A model generated the notes under the pieces. The model was not told the origin of the DNA, searched no databases, and was given only the letters and a program-made list of their open reading frames with translations. The translations under genes were made by a program, and so were the position numbers. 10,391 nt of DNA from a bacterium (lineage in GTDB: Bacteria; ARS69): contig JALGZO010000253.1 of assembly GCA_025774865.1 (NCBI GenBank), positions 1 to 10,391 of the forward strand, given 5' to 3'. Shown here in pieces: positions 221-10,391 of this stretch; position 1 is the first letter of the stretch, and each line of letters starts with the position of its first letter.

Positions 221-300
221 GACCGCACCCGCGAATGAATTGCCGAGGCGGCATGGTAGCTCCTTCTCGGGCCGACGACGAGACCCTTTCGGGCCGGTGT

Positions 301-329
301 TTGACCGAACCTGGCGAAGTCTCTACCAT
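301..329 (+). promoter_or_regulatory. Putative sigma-70-type promoter for the M14 peptidase gene
   Basis: TTGACC at 301-306 matches five of six bases of the -35 consensus. It is followed after exactly 17 bases by TACCAT at 324-329 (four of six of the -10 consensus). Transcription would start near 336, leaving a leader of about 55 bases before the ATG at 391. The position supports the 391 start, because an upstream in-frame ATG at 328 would overlap the -10 element. This is consensus matching by eye in GC-rich DNA, and the real sigma factor preference of this organism is unknown. Confidence 0.45.
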
Positions 330-390
330 GAGCGTACATCTTTTTCCCGTGGAACCGATCCGTTCCGATTCCCGCTCCGGAGCTGCCCCC

Positions 391-2673
391 ATGACTCGCA
401 TCGCCGTCTTCCTCGTGTGTCTCGCGTCCTTCCTGACTGCGGCCCGGCCGGCCGCGCGAGCTAGCGAATCCCCCACCGAGCGACCTCACATCCGCGCCGA
501 AGTGACGGTCCCGACCAAAGCACGACTGAAGGAGCTCGTGGCCTCGGACCTCGACATCACCGACGCTCACGGAACCACCTTCGAAGTGCTCGTCACCCGC
601 GCCGAGCTCGACGAGCTGATGGGGCGCGGCTTCCCCACGCGCATCGTGGAAGCCGACGTCTACGCGCCTGGTGGCCTGCGGGGAGGTGGCTGGCTTCCCG
701 AATACATGTCGTACACGGAAGCCGTCGCGGCGCTCAACGCATTCGCGTCGACCTATCCCGCGATAACCGACCTCTCGAGCATCGGGACGAGCACCGAGGG
801 CCGCGACATCTGGGCGCTGAAGATCTCCGACAACCCGACTGTGGACGAGAGCGAGCCGGAAGTTCTGATTCTCGGCAATACCCACGCCCGCGAGCAGATC
901 ACTCAGATCATCTGCGTCGCGATCGCCGACAGCCTCCTTTCGAACTACGGCAGCGATCCGCAGTACACGGAATGGGTGGATGAGCGCGAGATCTGGATCG
1001 TGCCGGTGCTCAACCCCGACGGGCTCACCTGGGTCGAGACGAACGACCTCTTCTGGCGAAAGAACCGCTGGGTCGATCCGCAGAGTCAGATCACCTACGG
1101 CGTGGACCTGAACCGCAACTACGCCTACGAGTGGGGGCACGACGACAACGGGTCGGACGGATCGAAATCGGGCCCGACCTATCGCGGGCCGTCTGCCGCA
1201 TCGGAGCCGGAAACGCAGGTCATGCAGAACTTCATCGACTCGCGAGACCTCGCGTTCTGCATCTCGTATCACGCTTACGGTAACCTGACGCTCTGGGCGC
1301 CGGGGTACAAACCGGCCATTCCGGTGGATCAGGATCTCTTCCTGGAGTTCGGGAAGGTCGTGAACCAGCAGAACGGCTACGAGCCGGGCAACACCGCGAT
1401 GGGCAACATCTATCTCACGAACGGCGTGATGGACGATTGGGTCTATCTCTCGCCGACCCATTCCAAGGTCTATTCGTTCACGCCGGAGGTCGGTACCGGC
1501 TCCGACTACTTCAATCCGCCGCCATCGCGCATCCCGACGCTCGTGCTCGAGGGTTCAGTCGCGGGCTGGACGGCGCTCGAGTACGCGGACCGGCCCGAGC
1601 GCCTGGCGCCGCCGGGGCAACCCACGATGCACGAAGTCGCGTCGCGGGCCGATGGCGACTACTCCGTGAGCTGGTCGGGACCGACCACCGCCGACACCGA
1701 GGTCGCCGTTTACGAACTCACCGAGAAGGAAGGCCCGTCCGTCGTCACCGACGACGCCGAGAGTGGAAGCGGCCACTGGGACCTCGGCGACTGGGCCGTC
1801 TCCGGCGCACGCAGCTTCAGCGGGTCGTCGAGCTTCCACTCCGGCAGCGGCGACGAGTTCAACCACATCCTGCTCGCGAAGGAGGGGTACGAGGTCCAGG
1901 CCGGCGACTCCTTCACGTTCCAGGCCTGGTACGACATCGAGAACAACTGGGACTACGCATACGTGCTGCTCTCCGCCGACGGCGGGCGTTCGCTCACGAA
2001 CCTCGAAGGGACCGGCACGACGATGTCCGACCCGAACGGCAACAACGCCGACCACGGGATCACCGGGTCCTCGGGGGGCTGGCAGCTCCACACCTACGAT
2101 CTGACTCCGTGGGTCGGGCAGACGGTCTGGCTGGGGCTGCGCTACTACACGGACCAGTCCGTGCAGGGAGAGGGCTTCTACGCCGACGATCTCCATCCCG
2201 TTCAGGAGTGGGCATCCACGACGATCCTGTCGTCGGCGGTCGTCGGCACGGAGTATCCGGTGACCGGCCAGCCCGACGGCACGTACTACTACTCCGCTCG
2301 GGGGCAGGACGCCGAAGGGGATTGGGGCTATCCCGCCGCGAACGTCTCCGTGATCGTGCAGGCGGCCACCGATGTCTCGACGCTGGGCGGGCGCCAGGTG
2401 TTCTCGCTCTCGGAGAACGTGCCAAACCCCTTCGGCGCGCGCACGACCATCCGGTTCAGTCTGCCGGTGGCCGCGGAGCACTCGCTCATCGTGTACAACG
2501 TGGCCGGCCGGCGGGTCCGTTCCCTTTCGTCGGGTTGGGTCCCGGCCGGGGCTCACGAGGTCCGGTGGGACGGTCGAAATGAAGAGGGAGACCTGGTGCC
2601 GTCCGGCGTCTACTTCTACCGCCTCTCGGCCGAAGGCCGGGAGCTCCACGAGCGCGCCGTTCTCCGGCGCTGA
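391..2673 (+). CDS. Secreted M14 zinc carboxypeptidase with jelly-roll/Fn3 region and C-terminal sorting-type domain
   Basis: A 760-residue exported metallopeptidase expected to remove C-terminal residues from peptides outside the cell. Residues 1-25 form a signal peptide (MTR, then a hydrophobic core, then ARAS). Residues about 34-90 look like the M14 activation propeptide. The catalytic domain spans about 105-400, with zinc ligands H165 and E168 (HARE) and H294 (SYHAYG). Substrate-binding residues are R223 (WRKNR) and N241-R242 (DLNRN). The catalytic glutamate is E366 (FTPEVG). Residues about 450-605 resemble the MAM-like jelly-roll of immune inhibitor A proteins, flanked by what look like two halves of an Fn3 domain. 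Residues about 668-760 are a FlgD-Ig/type IX-like C-terminal module (NPFGARTTIRFSLP, then WDGRNEEGDLVPSGVYFYRL). The start at 391 is preferred because it gives a clean signal peptide, has GGAG 8 bases upstream, and sits downstream of the promoter at 301-329. Exact substrate specificity (A, B or T type) cannot be read with confidence. Confidence 0.93.
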   Translation: MTRIAVFLVCLASFLTAARPAARASESPTERPHIRAEVTVPTKARLKELVASDLDITDAHGTTFEVLVTRAELDELMGRGFPTRIVEADVYAPGGLRGGGWLPEYMSYTEAVAALNAFASTYPAITDLSSIGTSTEGRDIWALKISDNPTVDESEPEVLILGNTHAREQITQIICVAIADSLLSNYGSDPQYTEWVDEREIWIVPVLNPDGLTWVETNDLFWRKNRWVDPQSQITYGVDLNRNYAYEWGHDDNGSDGSKSGPTYRGPSAASEPETQVMQNFIDSRDLAFCISYHAYGNLTLWAPGYKPAIPVDQDLFLEFGKVVNQQNGYEPGNTAMGNIYLTNGVMDDWVYLSPTHSKVYSFTPEVGTGSDYFNPPPSRIPTLVLEGSVAGWTALEYADRPERLAPPGQPTMHEVASRADGDYSVSWSGPTTADTEVAVYELTEKEGPSVVTDDAESGSGHWDLGDWAVSGARSFSGSSSFHSGSGDEFNHILLAKEGYEVQAGDSFTFQAWYDIENNWDYAYVLLSADGGRSLTNLEGTGTTMSDPNGNNADHGITGSSGGWQLHTYDLTPWVGQTVWLGLRYYTDQSVQGEGFYADDLHPVQEWASTTILSSAVVGTEYPVTGQPDGTYYYSARGQDAEGDWGYPAANVSVIVQAATDVSTLGGRQVFSLSENVPNPFGARTTIRFSLPVAAEHSLIVYNVAGRRVRSLSSGWVPAGAHEVRWDGRNEEGDLVPSGVYFYRLSAEGRELHERAVLRR

Positions 2674-5256: not shown

Positions 5257-5493
5257 ATGAGCAGGGTATGCATGGTGACGGGAATCCGTCCGAGCACGGG
5301 AAACAACGTCAGCCACGCGAACAACAAGACCCGGCGCCGCTGGAAGCCGAACCTCGTGAGGAAGCGCTACCTCCTGGAAGAGGAGAACCGCTGGATCCGC
5401 CTGCGAGTGTCGGCCAAGGGTATGAAGATCATCGACAAGCGAGGTCTCGCCACGGTCGTCCGTGAAATGCGCGCCCGAGGCGTCAAGATCTAG
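5257..5493 (+). CDS. rpmB: 50S ribosomal protein L28
   Basis: A structural protein of the large ribosomal subunit. At 78 residues it matches the length of E. coli L28 and its conserved blocks: [20 protein letters not shown] at the start, [28 protein letters not shown] in the C-terminal half, and an RARG end. Only C5 is present, so this looks like the form without a zinc ribbon. The ATG is supported by GGGGAG at 5245-5250, 6 bases upstream. Its last 11 bases, including the stop codon, overlap the end of the convergent deoA gene. No room is left for an ordinary terminator between the two transcription units. Confidence 0.97.
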
Positions 5494-6790
5494 CGGGTTC
5501 CACCATCAGCGCCGGCGCCGCCACCGCTTCCTCCGCGATCTGCACGGCGGCGCGAAACCGACCCGCCGCGCGTGCCGCGTCCTCGTCAGTGTTCGCGTGC
5601 ACGTCCGCGAGCGATCGCCCCGACTCGACCCGGTCACCGAGCTTCGCCCGCAGAACGAATCCCACGGACGGATCCACGGGGTCGCCCAGCCGCGCGCGGC
5701 CGGCTCCGAGGGCATTCGCGGCGAGTCCGATCTCACGGGTATCGAATCCGGCGAGAAAGCCGGTGCGCTCGGACGGGATCTCGCGCACTACGGGGGCACT
5801 CGGAAGCCGCGACGGATCGTCGACCGTGGCGGGATCACCCCCCTGGAGCTCGACCCAGCGGCGAAACGCCGCGAGCGCCTCGCCCGACTGAATCTTCTCC
5901 TTCACGAGCGCACGGCCCGCCTCCCGATCACTCGCGACTCCTCCCAGCACCGTCATCTCCGCGCCGAGAACGAGGGTCAGCTCCACGACGTCGGGGGGCC
6001 CTTCCCCGCGCAACACTTCGATCGACTCGACGATTTCGAGGGCGTTTCCGACGGCGCGACCGAGCGGCTGGTCCATCGACGTCACGAGCGCCGTCGCCTT
6101 CTTTCCCAGCTTGCCCGAGACTTCCACGAGAACCCGCGCGAGCTCGGCCGCTTCCTCGGGCTCGCGCATGAACGCACCCGTTCCGCTCTTGACGTCGAGG
6201 ACGAGCGCGTCCACGCCGGCCGCGAACTTCTTCGACAGGATGCTCCCGGTGATGAGAGGGATGCTCGGCACGGTGCCGGTGACGTCGCGCAGCTCGTACA
6301 GCTTGCGATCGGCCGGCGCCAGGGAATCGTTCGCCCCGATGATGGAGTAGCCCACCTCACGGATGACTCGTCGGAACGTCTCGGTATCGAGCGACGTGCT
6401 CAGCCCCGGGATCGATTCGAGCTTGTCGAGGGTCCCGCCGGTGTGTCCGAGGCCCCGTCCCGAGATCATGGGAATCGTCACGCCGGCGCTCGCGACTGCG
6501 GGGGCCAGTGGAATCGAGATCTTGTCGCCCACGCCACCGGTCGAGTGCTTGTCGACCTTCACCCCGGGGAGATCCACGAGGCTCAGAACCTCCCCGGAGC
6601 TCATCATGAGCCGCGTGAGGTCCGCGGTCTCCTGCGCCGTCATGCCTCGGTGGAGAACGGCCATGAGCCAGGCGGACATCTGGTACGCGGGGATCGTCTC
6701 GTCCAGGAAACCCTTCAGAAGGAACTCGAGCTCCTCCGCGGAAGTGACCTCTCCTTCCCGCTTTCGCTCGATGAGCTCCGGGACGTTCAT
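5483..6790 (-). CDS. deoA: Pyrimidine-nucleoside (thymidine) phosphorylase
   Basis: Catalyses reversible phosphorolysis of thymidine, deoxyuridine and probably uridine to the free base and (deoxy)ribose 1-phosphate. It has 435 residues, normal for the family. The N-terminal helical domain starts [20 protein letters not shown]. The phosphate site is [13 protein letters not shown] with K81 and S83. The family signature [16 protein letters not shown] begins at S110 and includes T120. Base-binding residues R168, S183 and K187 fall at exactly the positions I recall for the Geobacillus pyrimidine-nucleoside phosphorylase. That favours the broad-specificity Pdp type (EC 2.4.2.2) over strict thymidine phosphorylase, but 2'-hydroxyl selectivity cannot be read with certainty. 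The ATG overlaps the deoC stop as ATGA (6787-6790), indicating translational coupling. It is the last gene of the nucleoside operon and collides tail-to-tail with rpmB. The name could equally be pdp. Confidence 0.95.
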
Positions 6791-7632
6791 GAACTCCAGC
6801 CGTCGGGGGAGACGTCGCCCTGGACGATCTCGATCGACGCCGAGGCGCCGAGCCTCGTCGCGCCCGCCTCGACCATGCGACGCGCCACCTCGGCGTCGCG
6901 GATCCCGCCCGCGGCCTTCACCCCCATGTCCGGCCCCACGACCCGCCGCATCAACGCCACGTCCTCCACGGTCGCGCCCGACGGCCCGAATCCGGTGGAC
7001 GTCTTCACGTAGTCGGCCCCGGCCGCTTTCGCGAGCGCGCATCCCTCGGCCTTCTCCTCGTCGGTGAGATAGGCGTTCTCGAGGATCACCTTCACCTGGG
7101 CCCGCGGCTTCCCGCATTCGACGACGGCGCGGATGTCGCGCTCGACCGTTCCGTAGTCCTTCGACTTGAGAGCCCCGATGTTGATCACCATGTCGAGCTC
7201 CGTCGCCCCGTCGAGCACGGCGCGACGTGCTTCGAACGCTTTCGTCTCGGACTTGTTCATCCCGTGGGGGAACCCGATGACCGTGCACACCTTCACGCGC
7301 GTGTCCCCCAGCAGGTCGGCGCAGAGCGGCACCCACCACGGCTGGACGCACACGGACGCGAAGCCGTTCTCCCGGGCCTGCTTGCAGAGTCTCTCGATGT
7401 CCTCGCGCGGGGCGTCCGGCTTGAGGACCGTGTGATCGATCATGGCCGCCAGACCCGGCGCCGGCGTCTCGCCCGGTCCGCCGCCGAGCCGGCAGATCCC
7501 GAGGTCCCGACAGAGATCCACCAGACCGTCAGCCGGAACCTGCCGGCGCTCGCGTGAAGGCTGCGTCTCCCTTTCCGCCAGCGCGCGGACGACCTCCTCG
7601 GTGATGCGGGTGATCAGCTCCTCGCGCGTCAC
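6787..7632 (-). CDS. deoC: Deoxyribose-5-phosphate aldolase with N-terminal extension
   Basis: Splits 2-deoxyribose 5-phosphate into glyceraldehyde 3-phosphate and acetaldehyde through a Schiff base. It has 281 residues, against about 220-225 for the similar Bacillus type. The TIM-barrel core begins at about residue 64 ([10 protein letters not shown]). Core residues are D147 ([13 protein letters not shown]), Schiff-base lysine K210 ([10 protein letters not shown]) and K239 (GVKAAGGIR), so the enzyme should be active. The extra N-terminus has an amphipathic helix (residues 3-20, [19 protein letters not shown] region), a polar segment, and a second stretch with two cysteines ([16 protein letters not shown]) before the core. 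The GTG at 7632 is chosen because it overlaps the rpiB stop as GTGA, the junction style used elsewhere in this operon. Starting at the core methionine would leave a gap of roughly 190 bases. The extension resembles microcompartment encapsulation peptides. Its function is inferred; that of the core is near certain. Confidence 0.95.
7573..7626 (-). other. Candidate microcompartment encapsulation helix of DeoC
   Basis: Codons 3-20 encode a predicted amphipathic helix. Hydrophobic residues L6, I7, I10, V14, V15 and L18 form one face, with charged and polar residues on the other. It is followed by a polar segment ([11 protein letters not shown]) before the enzyme core. This is the design of N-terminal encapsulation peptides on known microcompartment cargo such as PduD and PduP. 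It also resembles the helix on the neighbouring RpiB-like protein. The pattern is seen in the sequence; the targeting role is inferred. Confidence 0.5.
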
Positions 7633-8168
7633 GACTCGAGTTCCATGATCTTGCGGACGCGTCGCAGGTGCCGATCCCCCTCGCATTCCGTCGAAAGCCA
7701 GAGCGAGACCATTCGCCGCGCGAGCGCCGCGGGGACGACGCGCGAGCCGAGAGACAGCACGTTTGCGTCGTTGTGTCGTCGGCTGTTGAGGACGGTGTCG
7801 ACGTCGTGGCAGACCGCGCACCTGATGCCCGCGATCTTGTTCGCGGCCATCGAGGATCCGATGCCCACGGTGTCGACCACGATGCCGGCCTCGCACCTTC
7901 CGTCGCGCACCTGGCCGGCCACGGCCGCCGCGAAATCGGGATAGTCCACGGACTCGTGCCCGTGGGTTCCGCAGTCGACCACCGTGAACGCCTTGGCCCG
8001 GAGATAGTCCGCGAGGTCGTCCTTCAGCGAGACCCCACCGTGATCGGCGCCGAGGGCAACGCGTTTGGGCGGCCAGGCCGCCGGCGTGGCGGCCTCGACG
8101 GCTGGGCGGCGGGCATCGACCTCCCGGAGGACGCGCCGCACGACGTCTTCGATCAATCGGCTTTCCAT
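7629..8168 (-). CDS. rpiB: RpiB/LacAB-family sugar-phosphate isomerase with N-terminal helix and altered active site
   Basis: Probably interconverts ribose 5-phosphate and ribulose 5-phosphate, or a related sugar phosphate. It has 179 residues, against about 149 in E. coli RpiB. The excess is N-terminal: an amphipathic helix (residues 2-17) and a Pro/Ala-rich linker ([15 protein letters not shown]). The core starts at about residue 35 with [10 protein letters not shown] (D42-H43). It continues with [16 protein letters not shown] with catalytic-type H132, LGSRVV, and [11 protein letters not shown], which matches the phosphate-binding C-terminus. E. coli RpiB has the catalytic cysteine in GILICGTGVG; this protein reads [10 protein letters not shown], so C66 is replaced by D99 and T68 by V101. 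The start is secured by GGAGGA 3 bases upstream. The gene overlaps cdd by 16 bases and deoC by 4 (GTGA). The family is certain, but the substrate is less so because of the active-site changes. Confidence 0.88.
8118..8165 (-). other. Candidate microcompartment encapsulation helix of the RpiB-like protein
   Basis: Codons 2-17 ([16 protein letters not shown]) place L5, I6, V9, V10, V13, L14 and V17 on one helix face and charged residues on the other. A flexible Pro/Ala linker then leads to the isomerase core. Short helices of this kind (LI-x2-VV-x2-VL pattern) are typical cargo tags of bacterial microcompartments, and ordinary RpiB proteins lack them. The function is inferred by resemblance. Confidence 0.55.
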
Positions 8169-8602
8169 TGATCCTCCAGGACGAAGGCCCTTGGCAGGAT
8201 CTCACCCAGCGTCACTTCGACGATTCCGTCGGCCCCGTCGATGAGGACCACGACGTCCGCTCCGCCGAACTCCCACAACACCTGCCGGCACGCGCCGCAC
8301 GGCCAGGGCGTGGCGGGACCCGAAGCGTGGACGGCGACCGCCGCGATCGGCGCCTCGCGGGGATCAAGGAGCCCCAGCACCCGGGCGGCGAAGACGGCGT
8401 TGCGCTCCGCGCAGATCGACAGGCCGTAGGACGCGTTCTCGACGTTGCAGCCGGTGATCACTTCACCGGACGCCACCCGGAGGGCCGAGCCGACGCGGTA
8501 GTCGGAGTAGGGTGCGTACGCGCGGGGCGCCGCGGCGCGGGCCGCCTCGACGAGCTCCTGGTGGTCTGGATTCATCGGGCGATTGTCGGCCTTTCCGCTC
8601 AC
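8153..8602 (-). CDS. cdd: Cytidine deaminase
   Basis: Deaminates cytidine and deoxycytidine to uridine and deoxyuridine, feeding the nucleoside phosphorylase encoded in the same operon. The small, probably homotetrameric type is indicated by [14 protein letters not shown] near the N-terminus. Zinc and catalytic motifs follow: [20 protein letters not shown], whose CAE supplies a cysteine zinc ligand and the catalytic glutamate, and [12 protein letters not shown], whose two cysteines complete a three-cysteine zinc site. The C-terminal LGEILPRAF is also typical. The start is uncertain. The GTG at 8602 gives 149 residues and overlaps the deoB stop as GTGA, the junction style of this operon. The ATG at 8575 gives 140 residues and better matches the Bacillus N-terminus (MN-x-ELI), but has no close Shine-Dalgarno. 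The end overlaps rpiB by 16 bases. Confidence 0.95.
8172..8177 (-). promoter_or_regulatory. Strong Shine-Dalgarno sequence of the rpiB-like gene
   Basis: GGAGGA (read on the minus strand) ends 3 bases before the ATG at 8168 and lies inside the end of cdd. It confirms that translation includes the N-terminal helix rather than starting at the isomerase core. Confidence 0.65.
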
Positions 8603-9774
8603 GCGGGCAAGTCCGCCAGAAACGACGAGCCGGCGCCGAGCTCTCCCGACTCGAAGTTGTCCGCGAGGGTCGCACCGAGGTCCGCGAAGGTGCTCCGCAC
8701 GCCGAGCCCCACGCCCCCCGGACGCCCCGTCCACGCGAGGAGCGGCACCTCCTCGCGCGAGTGGTCCGTGCTCGGCGTCGTGGGATCGTTACCGTGATCG
8801 GCCGTGAACAGGAGCAGCGTGTCGCGGTCCGCCGCCGCCAGCAGCTCCGGAACGCGCGCATCCAACTCCCGCAGCGCGCCGGCCATTCCCACCGGATCGT
8901 TGCGATGCCCGAAGCTCATGTCGAACTCGATCAGGTTCGTGAACACGAGACCCGTGTCCATCTCGCCGAGCGCATGGATGGTGGCGTCCACGCACTCCAT
9001 GTTCGGGAGCACGTGGTGGGACTTCGTGATACCTCGCTTCGCGAAGATATCGTCGATCTTCCCGACGGAGATCACCTCGTGGCCTTCCGCCGCCAGAAGA
9101 TCGAGAACCGTCGTGCCGCTCGGCGAAAGCGAGAAGTCGCGACGATTGTCCGTGCGACGATACTCGCCCGGCTCCCCCACGAACGGTCGAGCGATCACCC
9201 GGCCGACGGCGTGCTCCCCCGCGAGCATCGCGCGGGTTTCCTCGCACAGTCCGTAGAGGTCCGTCAGCGGAATCGTCTGCTCGTGAGCCGCGATCTGGAA
9301 GACGGAGTCGGCCGACGTGTAGACGATGGGACGGCCCGTTCGCTGATGCTCCTCGCCGAGCTCTTCGATGATCGCGGTACCGGACGCCACGACGTTCCCG
9401 AGCGCAGGCCTCCCCGCGATCTTCTCGAAGTTCCTCATCACTTCCGGGGGGAAGGCATCGGGATAGGTCGGCAGCGGCTCGCTCAAGATGACGCCGGCGA
9501 TCTCCCAGTGGCCCGTGGTCGTGTCCTTACCGGCCGAGACCTCGCGCATCCGTCCCCAGGACGCGGCGGGCTCCACGGTCCGCGATACGCCCTGCATCGC
9601 GACGACGTTGCCGAGGCCGAGCGCCTCGAGGTTCGGAAGGCTGATTCCTCCCACGGCGCGCGAGGTGTTCCCGAGCGTGTCGGATCCCTCGTCGCCGAAG
9701 TCGGCCGCATCCGGCGCGGCTCCGGCGCCGACCCCGTCCAGTACGACGATTGCGGCCTTGCGGAATCGCTTCAC
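8599..9774 (-). CDS. deoB: Phosphopentomutase
   Basis: Converts (deoxy)ribose 1-phosphate to (deoxy)ribose 5-phosphate, linking the nucleoside phosphorylase to DeoC and the RpiB-like isomerase. It belongs to the alkaline phosphatase superfamily, has two metal ions, and is cytoplasmic. At 391 residues it is normal for the family. Metal ligands are D13 (VVLDGVGAG), D285 and H290 (EFDMSFGH), D326-H327 (TADHGND) and H338 (STDHSR). The catalytic, phosphorylated threonine is T85 in GKDTTTGHWEIAG. These fall within one position of the Bacillus cereus enzyme as I recall it. The internal cap domain (about 100-215) carries the expected VYTSADSVFQIAAHE block. The GTG start at 9774 overlaps the alr stop as GTGA and leaves only a short VKRFRK ahead of the first strand. 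No key residue is missing. Confidence 0.96.
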   Translation of the reverse strand: MKRFRKAAIVVLDGVGAGAAPDAADFGDEGSDTLGNTSRAVGGISLPNLEALGLGNVVAMQGVSRTVEPAASWGRMREVSAGKDTTTGHWEIAGVILSEPLPTYPDAFPPEVMRNFEKIAGRPALGNVVASGTAIIEELGEEHQRTGRPIVYTSADSVFQIAAHEQTIPLTDLYGLCEETRAMLAGEHAVGRVIARPFVGEPGEYRRTDNRRDFSLSPSGTTVLDLLAAEGHEVISVGKIDDIFAKRGITKSHHVLPNMECVDATIHALGEMDTGLVFTNLIEFDMSFGHRNDPVGMAGALRELDARVPELLAAADRDTLLLFTADHGNDPTTPSTDHSREEVPLLAWTGRPGGVGLGVRSTFADLGATLADNFESGELGAGSSFLADLPA

Positions 9775-10391
9775 CCCTCGCCCGCCCCCGTCTGCTCCGA
9801 GCCGAGCAGCGTCCGCACTCCGACCTTTCGTCCGACTCTCGTGTACACCCGCGTCACCCGGCGACCGATCCCGCACAGGATCTCATAGGGAATCGTTCCC
9901 GCAAGGCGCGCAACGTCCGACGCCCGGATCGCCTCGTCCGCTTGGTGACCGAACAGGACCATCTCATCGCCGAGACGTGCATCGGGAACGCCGCGTAAAT
10001 CGAACACGGTGGTATCCATCGTCACGCGCCCGAGAATCGGTACCCGCCGTCCTCGCAGGAGGGCGTATCCGCGCCCCGACAGCCCGAACGGATAGCCGTG
10101 ACCGTACCCCACCGCCGCGGTACCCACTCGCATGCGCTCGGGCGCGACGAAGTCCCCTCCGTACGACACGGAATGTCCCGGCGGTAGCTCGCGCACGTGG
10201 ACGAGCCGCGATACGAACCGCATGACCGGACGGAGCTCGGCCGGCGGCGCCACCATGGCCGACGACGTGAGGCCGTACGCGAGGATGCCGATCCGCACCA
10301 TGTCGAAGTACGAGTCCATGTGGTTCACGACCGCAGCGCTGTTCGCGGCGTGCAGAATCCCCGGATCGATTCCGGCCGCGCGAACGGTCTC
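9771..10391 (-). CDS. alr: Alanine racemase, C-terminal part (5' end beyond the right window edge)
   Basis: A PLP enzyme that makes D-alanine for peptidoglycan. About 206 C-terminal residues are visible. They include the end of the barrel (GILHAANSAAVVNH, then FDMVRIGILAYGL with the arginine that contacts the PLP ring nitrogen). The C-terminal beta domain carries the second catalytic base, the tyrosine of SVSYGGDF, and the substrate-carboxylate region RVPILGRVTMD. The end, GIGRRVTRVY, is also typical. The PLP lysine lies outside the window. The usual GYADGYPR motif reads GYGHGYPF here, a departure whose effect I cannot judge. The stop overlaps the deoB start as GTGA, so alr is co-translated with nucleoside catabolic genes, an unusual partnership. 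The operon promoter should lie upstream of alr, beyond 10391. Confidence 0.92.
   Translation of the reverse strand, partial: ETVRAAGIDPGILHAANSAAVVNHMDSYFDMVRIGILAYGLTSSAMVAPPAELRPVMRFVSRLVHVRELPPGHSVSYGGDFVAPERMRVGTAAVGYGHGYPFGLSGRGYALLRGRRVPILGRVTMDTTVFDLRGVPDARLGDEMVLFGHQADEAIRASDVARLAGTIPYEILCGIGRRVTRVYTRVGRKVGVRTLLGSEQTGAGEG

What the first reader, a model, noticed from the sequence alone, without database searches (positions are those of the whole stretch)
7573..8168. DeoC and the RpiB-like enzyme both carry encapsulation-peptide-like N-terminal helices: candidate SPU microcompartment cargo
Seen: two adjacent, unrelated enzymes each have an extra N-terminus of roughly 35-65 residues made of a short amphipathic helix ([14 protein letters not shown] in the isomerase; [16 protein letters not shown] in the aldolase) and a linker before a standard core. 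Start codons that include the helices are supported by GGAGGA (isomerase) and a GTGA overlap (aldolase). Known: helix-plus-linker tags of this form direct cargo into bacterial microcompartments, and DeoC plus RpiB is, to my recollection, the signature pair of the largely uncharacterised SPU microcompartment class. The aldolase releases acetaldehyde, a volatile toxic intermediate of the kind microcompartments usually contain. Inference: this operon feeds a nucleoside-sugar-processing compartment. No shell gene is visible here.
Basis: partly seen in the sequence, partly recalled or inferred. Interest (0 to 1): 0.85.

Follow-up and report, generated by a model that had tools for sequence, protein, structure and literature searches.

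The report
Split microcompartment for DNA-sugar breakdown
Two enzymes of a DNA-sugar breakdown operon carry short helical address tags like those that send enzymes into bacterial protein organelles; the same genome encodes such an organelle on another contig, which makes the untested role of this organelle class (digesting DNA sugars) directly testable.

Summary
The RpiB-like isomerase (7629-8168, -) and DeoC (6787-7632, -) each carry an N-terminal amphipathic helix plus a flexible linker. Helices and the 4-nt gene overlap are conserved in three relatives. Cdd, DeoB and Pdp in the same operon have no tag. C260 has the gene order of SPU loci in Gemmatimonadota and Chloroflexi, but rpiB and deoC are missing and sit in the deo operon instead. 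Two near relatives and five Krumholzibacteriota genomes show the same split, one on a single 3.84-Mb contig with the loci about 2 Mb apart. In Krumholzibacteriota DeoC carries a helix in 38/38 shell-encoding and 0/30 shell-less genomes (few independent contrasts). The window RpiB belongs to the SPU isomerase group, in which Asp replaces the catalytic Cys. Best reading: a split SPU microcompartment fed by deoxynucleoside catabolism. Encapsulation is untested. One relative (G004, 82% complete) has tags but no shell gene found.

The parts
8112..8168 (-). Encapsulation-peptide-like helix of the RpiB-like isomerase (residues 1-19, [19 protein letters not shown])
   Evidence: AF2 helix 2-19; matrix scores above all background segments; VVRRV invariant in four genomes
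8064..8111 (-). Linker of RpiB (residues 20-35), variable in length among relatives
7629..8168 (-). rpiB-like sugar-phosphate isomerase, SPU type; Asp99 (7872-7874) in place of the catalytic Cys
   Evidence: PF02502, TIGR01120, residue check, tree
8172..8177 (-). GGAGGA ribosome-binding site before rpiB
   Evidence: read from sequence
7564..7632 (-). Encapsulation-peptide-like helix of DeoC (residues 1-23, [23 protein letters not shown])
   Evidence: AF2 helix 3-23; scores 24.0 with the SPU DeoC tag matrix, 0/4000 shuffles
7453..7563 (-). Low-confidence linker of DeoC (residues 24-60), with a pre-core motif around 7483-7512 (residues 41-50, [10 protein letters not shown]) resembling the GA.R motif of SPU DeoC
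6787..7632 (-). deoC, 2-deoxyribose-5-phosphate aldolase
   Evidence: PF01791, TIGR00126 278.9 bits over a 117.3 cut-off
7629..7632 (-). 4-nt stop/start overlap rpiB-deoC (GTGA), conserved as GTGA or ATGA in relatives
5483..6790 (-). pdp, pyrimidine-nucleoside phosphorylase; untagged
8153..8587 (-). cdd, cytidine deaminase; untagged
8599..9774 (-). deoB, phosphopentomutase; untagged
9771..10391 (-). alr, alanine racemase, cut by the contig end; same operon position in relatives

Best explanation
The window holds the substrate-feeding half of a split sugar-phosphate-utilization (SPU) microcompartment. Untagged Cdd, Pdp and DeoB act in the cytosol and turn pyrimidine deoxynucleosides into 2-deoxyribose-5-phosphate. 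DeoC and the RpiB-like isomerase carry N-terminal encapsulation peptides that load them into a shell encoded elsewhere in the genome (contig C260). Inside, DeoC releases acetaldehyde and glyceraldehyde-3-phosphate, and the tagged EutE-type dehydrogenase converts acetaldehyde to acetyl-CoA behind the shell. Shown: both tags, their specificity within the operon, the shell locus, its tagged dehydrogenase and class II aldolase, and conservation of the split in two phyla. Inferred: encapsulation, reaction direction, substrate entry through the shell, and what the isomerase and the class II aldolase act on.
For: Shell locus in the same assembly with a EutE-type AldDH. Tags outscore background and form helices with flexible linkers. 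C260 has SPU gene order minus rpiB-deoC. The same split is found in G002 and G003 and in five Krumholzibacteriota, with the whole alr-deoB-cdd-rpiB-deoC-pdp string in G064 and G065. DeoC helix and shell genes go together in Krumholzibacteriota, 38/38 against 0/30. The window RpiB shares Asp99 with all 11 SPU-locus RpiB and groups with the split Krumholzibacteriota, 98/92. RpiA is present in all five phylum members, so the tagged RpiB need not serve housekeeping.
Against: No experiment shows encapsulation. G004 carries both tags and no shell gene was found, though it is only 82% complete. The tag-shell association rests on few independent evolutionary contrasts. The window assembly is a metagenome bin with 8.3% contamination; C260 belonging to it is supported by its presence in relatives, not by linkage.
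Confidence: 0.82

Rival explanations
1. The compartment runs in the reverse direction: DeoC condenses acetaldehyde with glyceraldehyde-3-phosphate to store aldehyde carbon or balance NADH, as proposed for Atribacteria.
For: Such a role (aldehyde condensation and storage) is proposed for Atribacteria BMC loci with DeoC and RpiB (PMC6281690); the aldolase reaction is reversible (general knowledge).
Against: Here the tagged DeoC is in an operon with Cdd, Pdp and DeoB, which normally degrade deoxynucleosides, in two phyla.
Confidence: 0.12
2. The shell on C260 mainly serves another sugar through the class II aldolase (for example a fuculose- or rhamnulose-phosphate type), and DNA-sugar use is a side function.
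For: The class II aldolase is in the shell locus with a C-terminal tag, as in PVM and ACI types. Its best NCBIfam match is a ribulose-1-phosphate aldolase, but far below cut-off, 121 against 300.
Against: The aldolase is absent from the otherwise matching Gemmatimonadota loci L110 and L144. Tagged DeoC and Asp-type RpiB are found wherever the deo operon was recovered in the phylum. Both uses could coexist.
Confidence: 0.25
3. The extensions are not targeting tags but serve the enzymes themselves, for example oligomer contacts, as an N-terminal helix may do in some DeoC.
For: Some DeoC of genomes without shell genes have N-terminal extensions (G054, G032).
Against: Two unrelated enzymes share the tag form with the shell-linked AldDH and class II aldolase. 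The tag matches those of DeoC next to shell genes in other phyla. G126, which has no shell gene found, has lost the helix segment.
Confidence: 0.08

Closest known systems
SPU (sugar phosphate utilization) BMC, Axen 2014 (PMC4207490) and Sutter 2021 (PMC8217296)
   Same: DeoC (PF01791) and RpiB (PF02502) with EP-like tags, AldDH, BMC-H and three BMC-P, shell gene order, Asp-type RpiB
   Different: Signature enzymes are not in the shell locus but in a separate complete deo operon; a class II aldolase lies in the shell locus
HO BMC (Haliangium ochraceum type)
   Same: Some genomes have a DeoC-type aldolase at a different place with an EP-like extension (PMC8217296)
   Different: H. ochraceum shell has three BMC-T and one BMC-H (PMC4207490); here one BMC-T and two BMC-H. 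A tagged RpiB and a deo operon were not described for HO in the passages read
SPU-like BMC of Latescibacteria
   Same: AldDH and class II aldolase in the shell locus, RpiB-like protein (PMC4207490)
   Different: There the RpiB-like gene is in the shell locus with PduL, PduS and acetate kinase, and no DeoC is described; here DeoC and RpiB are remote
ACI and PVM BMC
   Same: Class II aldolase (PF00596); in ACI with a C-terminal EP and a BMC-P triplet
   Different: ACI AldDH lies on a satellite locus and the main locus has a hydroxyacid dehydrogenase; neither applies to C260

Membership tests
SPU BMC | BMC-H and BMC-P shell genes in the genome | tested here: met
   Two BMC-H, one BMC-T, three BMC-P on C260
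SPU BMC | PF01791 and PF02502 signature enzymes | tested here: met
   Both present and tagged
SPU BMC | Signature enzymes encoded in the shell locus | tested here: not met
   They lie on another contig; unlinked in G003 and G065. It is therefore filed as a split variant, not as a standard SPU locus
SPU BMC | BMC-type aldehyde dehydrogenase | tested here: met
   PRK15398 (EutE) 606 bits over 403, N-terminal helix
SPU BMC | Isomerase of the SPU group (shared Asp for Cys) | tested here: met
   11/11 SPU loci and 4/4 window phylum have Asp; group support 90/77, not starred
Encapsulation peptide | Terminal amphipathic helix of about 18 residues plus a poorly conserved disordered linker (PMC12339742) | tested here: met
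Encapsulation peptide | Directs cargo into a shell | not testable with these tools
   needs an experiment
Satellite BMC locus | Distal locus that contains shell proteins (PMC8217296) | tested here: not met
   No shell gene in the window
HO BMC | Shell composition of H. [quoted passage not shown]
   Two BMC-H, one BMC-T, three BMC-P
ACI BMC | AldDH on a satellite locus; hydroxyacid dehydrogenase in the main locus | tested here: not met
   AldDH is inside C260 and no hydroxyacid dehydrogenase was seen there

The most novel reading that the evidence does not exclude
The Asp-type RpiB of SPU compartments is not a ribose-5-phosphate isomerase but a different sugar-phosphate isomerase that works with the tagged class II aldolase. 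The split compartment would then have two aldehyde-producing branches (DeoC from DNA sugars; isomerase plus class II aldolase from a second sugar) sharing one dehydrogenase.
Probability: 0.25. Interest if true: 0.75.

Novelty: new variant of a known kind. Interest (0 to 1): 0.62.

Why it matters
SPU compartments are widespread (over 280 loci in 26 phyla in PMC8217296), but their role in breaking down DNA sugars is inferred from two enzymes next to shell genes. Here those enzymes, with their targeting tags, lie in an operon with the enzymes that make deoxyribose phosphate from nucleosides, and this is conserved in two phyla. That names a substrate to test. It also shows that catalogues which look only near shell genes can miss the signature enzymes, so some shell loci of unknown function may be split systems. 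The Asp-for-Cys change raises the question of what the SPU isomerase does.

Tried and rejected
Adjacency of C256 and C260 was considered, because C260 ends inside xerD and C256 ends inside alr. It is unlikely, since relatives G003 and G065 show the loci unlinked. A lone extension as proof of a tag was rejected: G054, without BMC-P genes, has an extended DeoC. A DeoC core tree to prove SPU descent failed: deep forks unresolved. Phylogeny-corrected testing of tag against shell has too few independent contrasts; there the tag states of Krumholzibacteriota were typed in after reading and follow shell status apart from rows left out, so that test is descriptive only. G131 looked like a tag without a shell until a truncated BMC-domain gene was found at its contig end. 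The genome-contig scan returned mostly Bacilli without extensions. The phylum of the window genome could not be named. Literature searches for a described deo operon encoding BMC cargo found none in the open-access library; subscription papers and preprints were not covered.

Full report
The window is contig C256 of a 4.7-Mb metagenome assembly in 785 contigs (92.65% complete, 8.3% contamination). On its minus strand it reads alr (cut by the contig end), deoB, cdd, rpiB, deoC, pdp. This is a pathway from pyrimidine deoxynucleosides to deoxyribose-5-phosphate and its cleavage. On the plus strand lie a carboxypeptidase-like protein, PBP1A and two small ribosomal proteins that I read as L33 and L28; the script labels rpmB and rpsR stand for these two.

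Observation. RpiB has 35 and DeoC 60 residues before their standard cores. Each extension is a helix plus a low-confidence linker in AlphaFold2 models. The starts are well supported: GGAGGA before rpiB, and a 4-nt stop/start overlap between rpiB and deoC that is kept in all four phylum members with the genes. The helices are conserved while the linkers change in length, and helix codons differ mostly at third positions. Cdd, DeoB and Pdp have no such extension, so tagging is specific to two enzymes of the operon.

The shell. PF00936 and PF03319 searches of the same assembly hit only contig C260: two BMC-H, one BMC-T with two BMC domains, and three BMC-P. Among them is a EutE-type aldehyde dehydrogenase (NF011927, 606 bits over a 403 cut-off) whose N-terminus begins MGIDAGRIDSIVARVVKRLESQ. 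After them comes a class II aldolase whose C-terminus ends ADEEIVARVTERVLAELRTQARGG. A matrix trained on these shell-linked tags in the family scores RpiB and DeoC N-termini above all 303 background segments. A matrix trained on DeoC tags of SPU loci in other phyla scores the window DeoC 24.0 against a background maximum of 7.4, with 0 of 4000 shuffles as high. RpiB N-termini in SPU loci of Anaerolineae and a Chloroflexi genome (L123, L175: INQIVRQVLAKLSA and VKEIVRQVLAQMTA) resemble the window RpiB tag.

The split. In SPU loci of Gemmatimonadota the order is rpiB, deoC, BMC-H, BMC-P, AldDH, BMC-T, BMC-P, BMC-P, and in Anaerolineales L164 a class II aldolase follows. C260 has this order without rpiB-deoC. 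Relatives G002 and G003 show the same pair of separate loci; G004 shows the deo operon only and G001 the shell locus only, in less complete assemblies. In G003 the shell locus lies mid-contig, about 46 kb or more from either end. Among 80 Krumholzibacteriota genomes, five (G060, G064, G065, G070, G072) have the split. G064 and G065 have the full alr-deoB-cdd-rpiB-deoC-pdp string near PBP1A; G070 and G072 have cdd-deoC-pdp and G060 deoC-pdp, near PBP1A. In G065 both loci are on one 3.84-Mb contig, about 2 Mb apart.

Tag and shell go together. Of 70 Krumholzibacteriota genomes with DeoC, 38 of 38 readable shell-encoding ones have a helix segment before the DeoC core, most of them inside an RpiB-DeoC fusion; none of 30 readable shell-less ones has it. 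The tag was read by eye and measured for the fusions. Fisher p is about 6e-20, but the genomes are related, and only two well-supported independent contrasts exist on the DeoC tree. One telling case is G126, which lies inside the shell-encoding group: no shell gene found, and only 18 residues between the two domains of its fusion (counted to the same point) instead of 64-103 in the relatives measured.

The isomerase. At position 99 the window RpiB has Asp where ordinary RpiB has the catalytic Cys (alignment to solved structures; Cys as catalytic base, PMC3212906). All 11 SPU-locus RpiB and all 4 of the window phylum have Asp; 13 ordinary copies have Cys. On the RpiB tree the window phylum and the five split Krumholzibacteriota form a starred clade (98/92) within the Asp group (90/77, not starred). 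RpiA is present in all five phylum members, so the tagged protein need not be the housekeeping isomerase. Its substrate is open.

Mechanism, by status. Shown by sequence: tags, operon, shell locus, tagged dehydrogenase and class II aldolase, conservation of the split. From established enzyme families: Cdd, Pdp and DeoB make deoxyribose-5-phosphate; DeoC makes acetaldehyde and glyceraldehyde-3-phosphate; EutE-type enzymes convert acetaldehyde to acetyl-CoA. Inferred: encapsulation, direction of flux, and passage of sugar phosphate through the shell. The reverse direction proposed for Atribacteria (PMC6281690) fits this operon less well.

Known and new. SPU compartments, their DeoC-RpiB signature and a suggested role in using products of DNA degradation are published (PMC4207490, PMC8217296). 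So is remote DeoC with an EP-like extension in genomes with HO compartments. Not found in the papers I could search: the tagged pair inside a complete deoxynucleoside operon, its conservation in two phyla, and the Asp-for-Cys marker of SPU isomerases. I therefore rate it a new variant of a known kind.

Noticed in passing
L303 (G126) 10260-11366: RpiB-DeoC fusion in a Krumholzibacteriota genome with no PF00936 or PF03319 gene found; the helix-bearing segment between the domains is gone, as if the tag was lost with the shell.
   Followed up: yes
window 7872-7874 (RpiB Asp99) and SPU-locus RpiB in L104-L175: All SPU-locus RpiB checked carry Asp in place of the catalytic Cys of ordinary RpiB, so the annotated ribose-5-phosphate isomerase function may be wrong or use another base.
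   Followed up: partly
L198, L209, L255 and other Krumholzibacteriota DeoC loci: RpiB and DeoC are fused into one protein with an internal helix (for example DLSEEDLQRIVARLQGLVGG) between the domains, so the targeting helix can apparently lie inside a protein.
   Followed up: partly
L110 9233-9490, L107 9169-9430 and equivalents in L108 and L174: Some SPU-locus RpiB have a different, longer N-terminal domain (VPDGALITPLARQVALERKLALV type) with at most a weak Pfam PDU_like match; possibly another targeting or assembly domain.
   Followed up: no
L068 9134-10408 and L070 10629-11870; absent at L008 7132-7139: Relatives G002 and G003 have a PduS-like SLBB/RnfC/4Fe-4S protein between AldDH and BMC-T; the window genome lacks it there.
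   Followed up: partly
G063: L177 (deoC), L223, L224, L225: A genome labelled only 'bacterium SJ803' has three BMC-P genes on three contigs and a remote DeoC with a short N-terminal helix, resembling fragmented (FRAG-like) BMC systems.
   Followed up: partly
window 7483-7512 and SPU-locus DeoC linkers: A second conserved motif (GA.R type; LGICRLGG in the window) lies just before the core of DeoC from shell-encoding genomes; its function is unknown.
   Followed up: partly
window 235-2673 (+): Carboxypeptidase-like secreted protein whose C-terminal part (NVPNPFGARTTIRFSL...VPSGVYFYRL) also hits many other places in the related loci, possibly a sorting domain.
   Followed up: no
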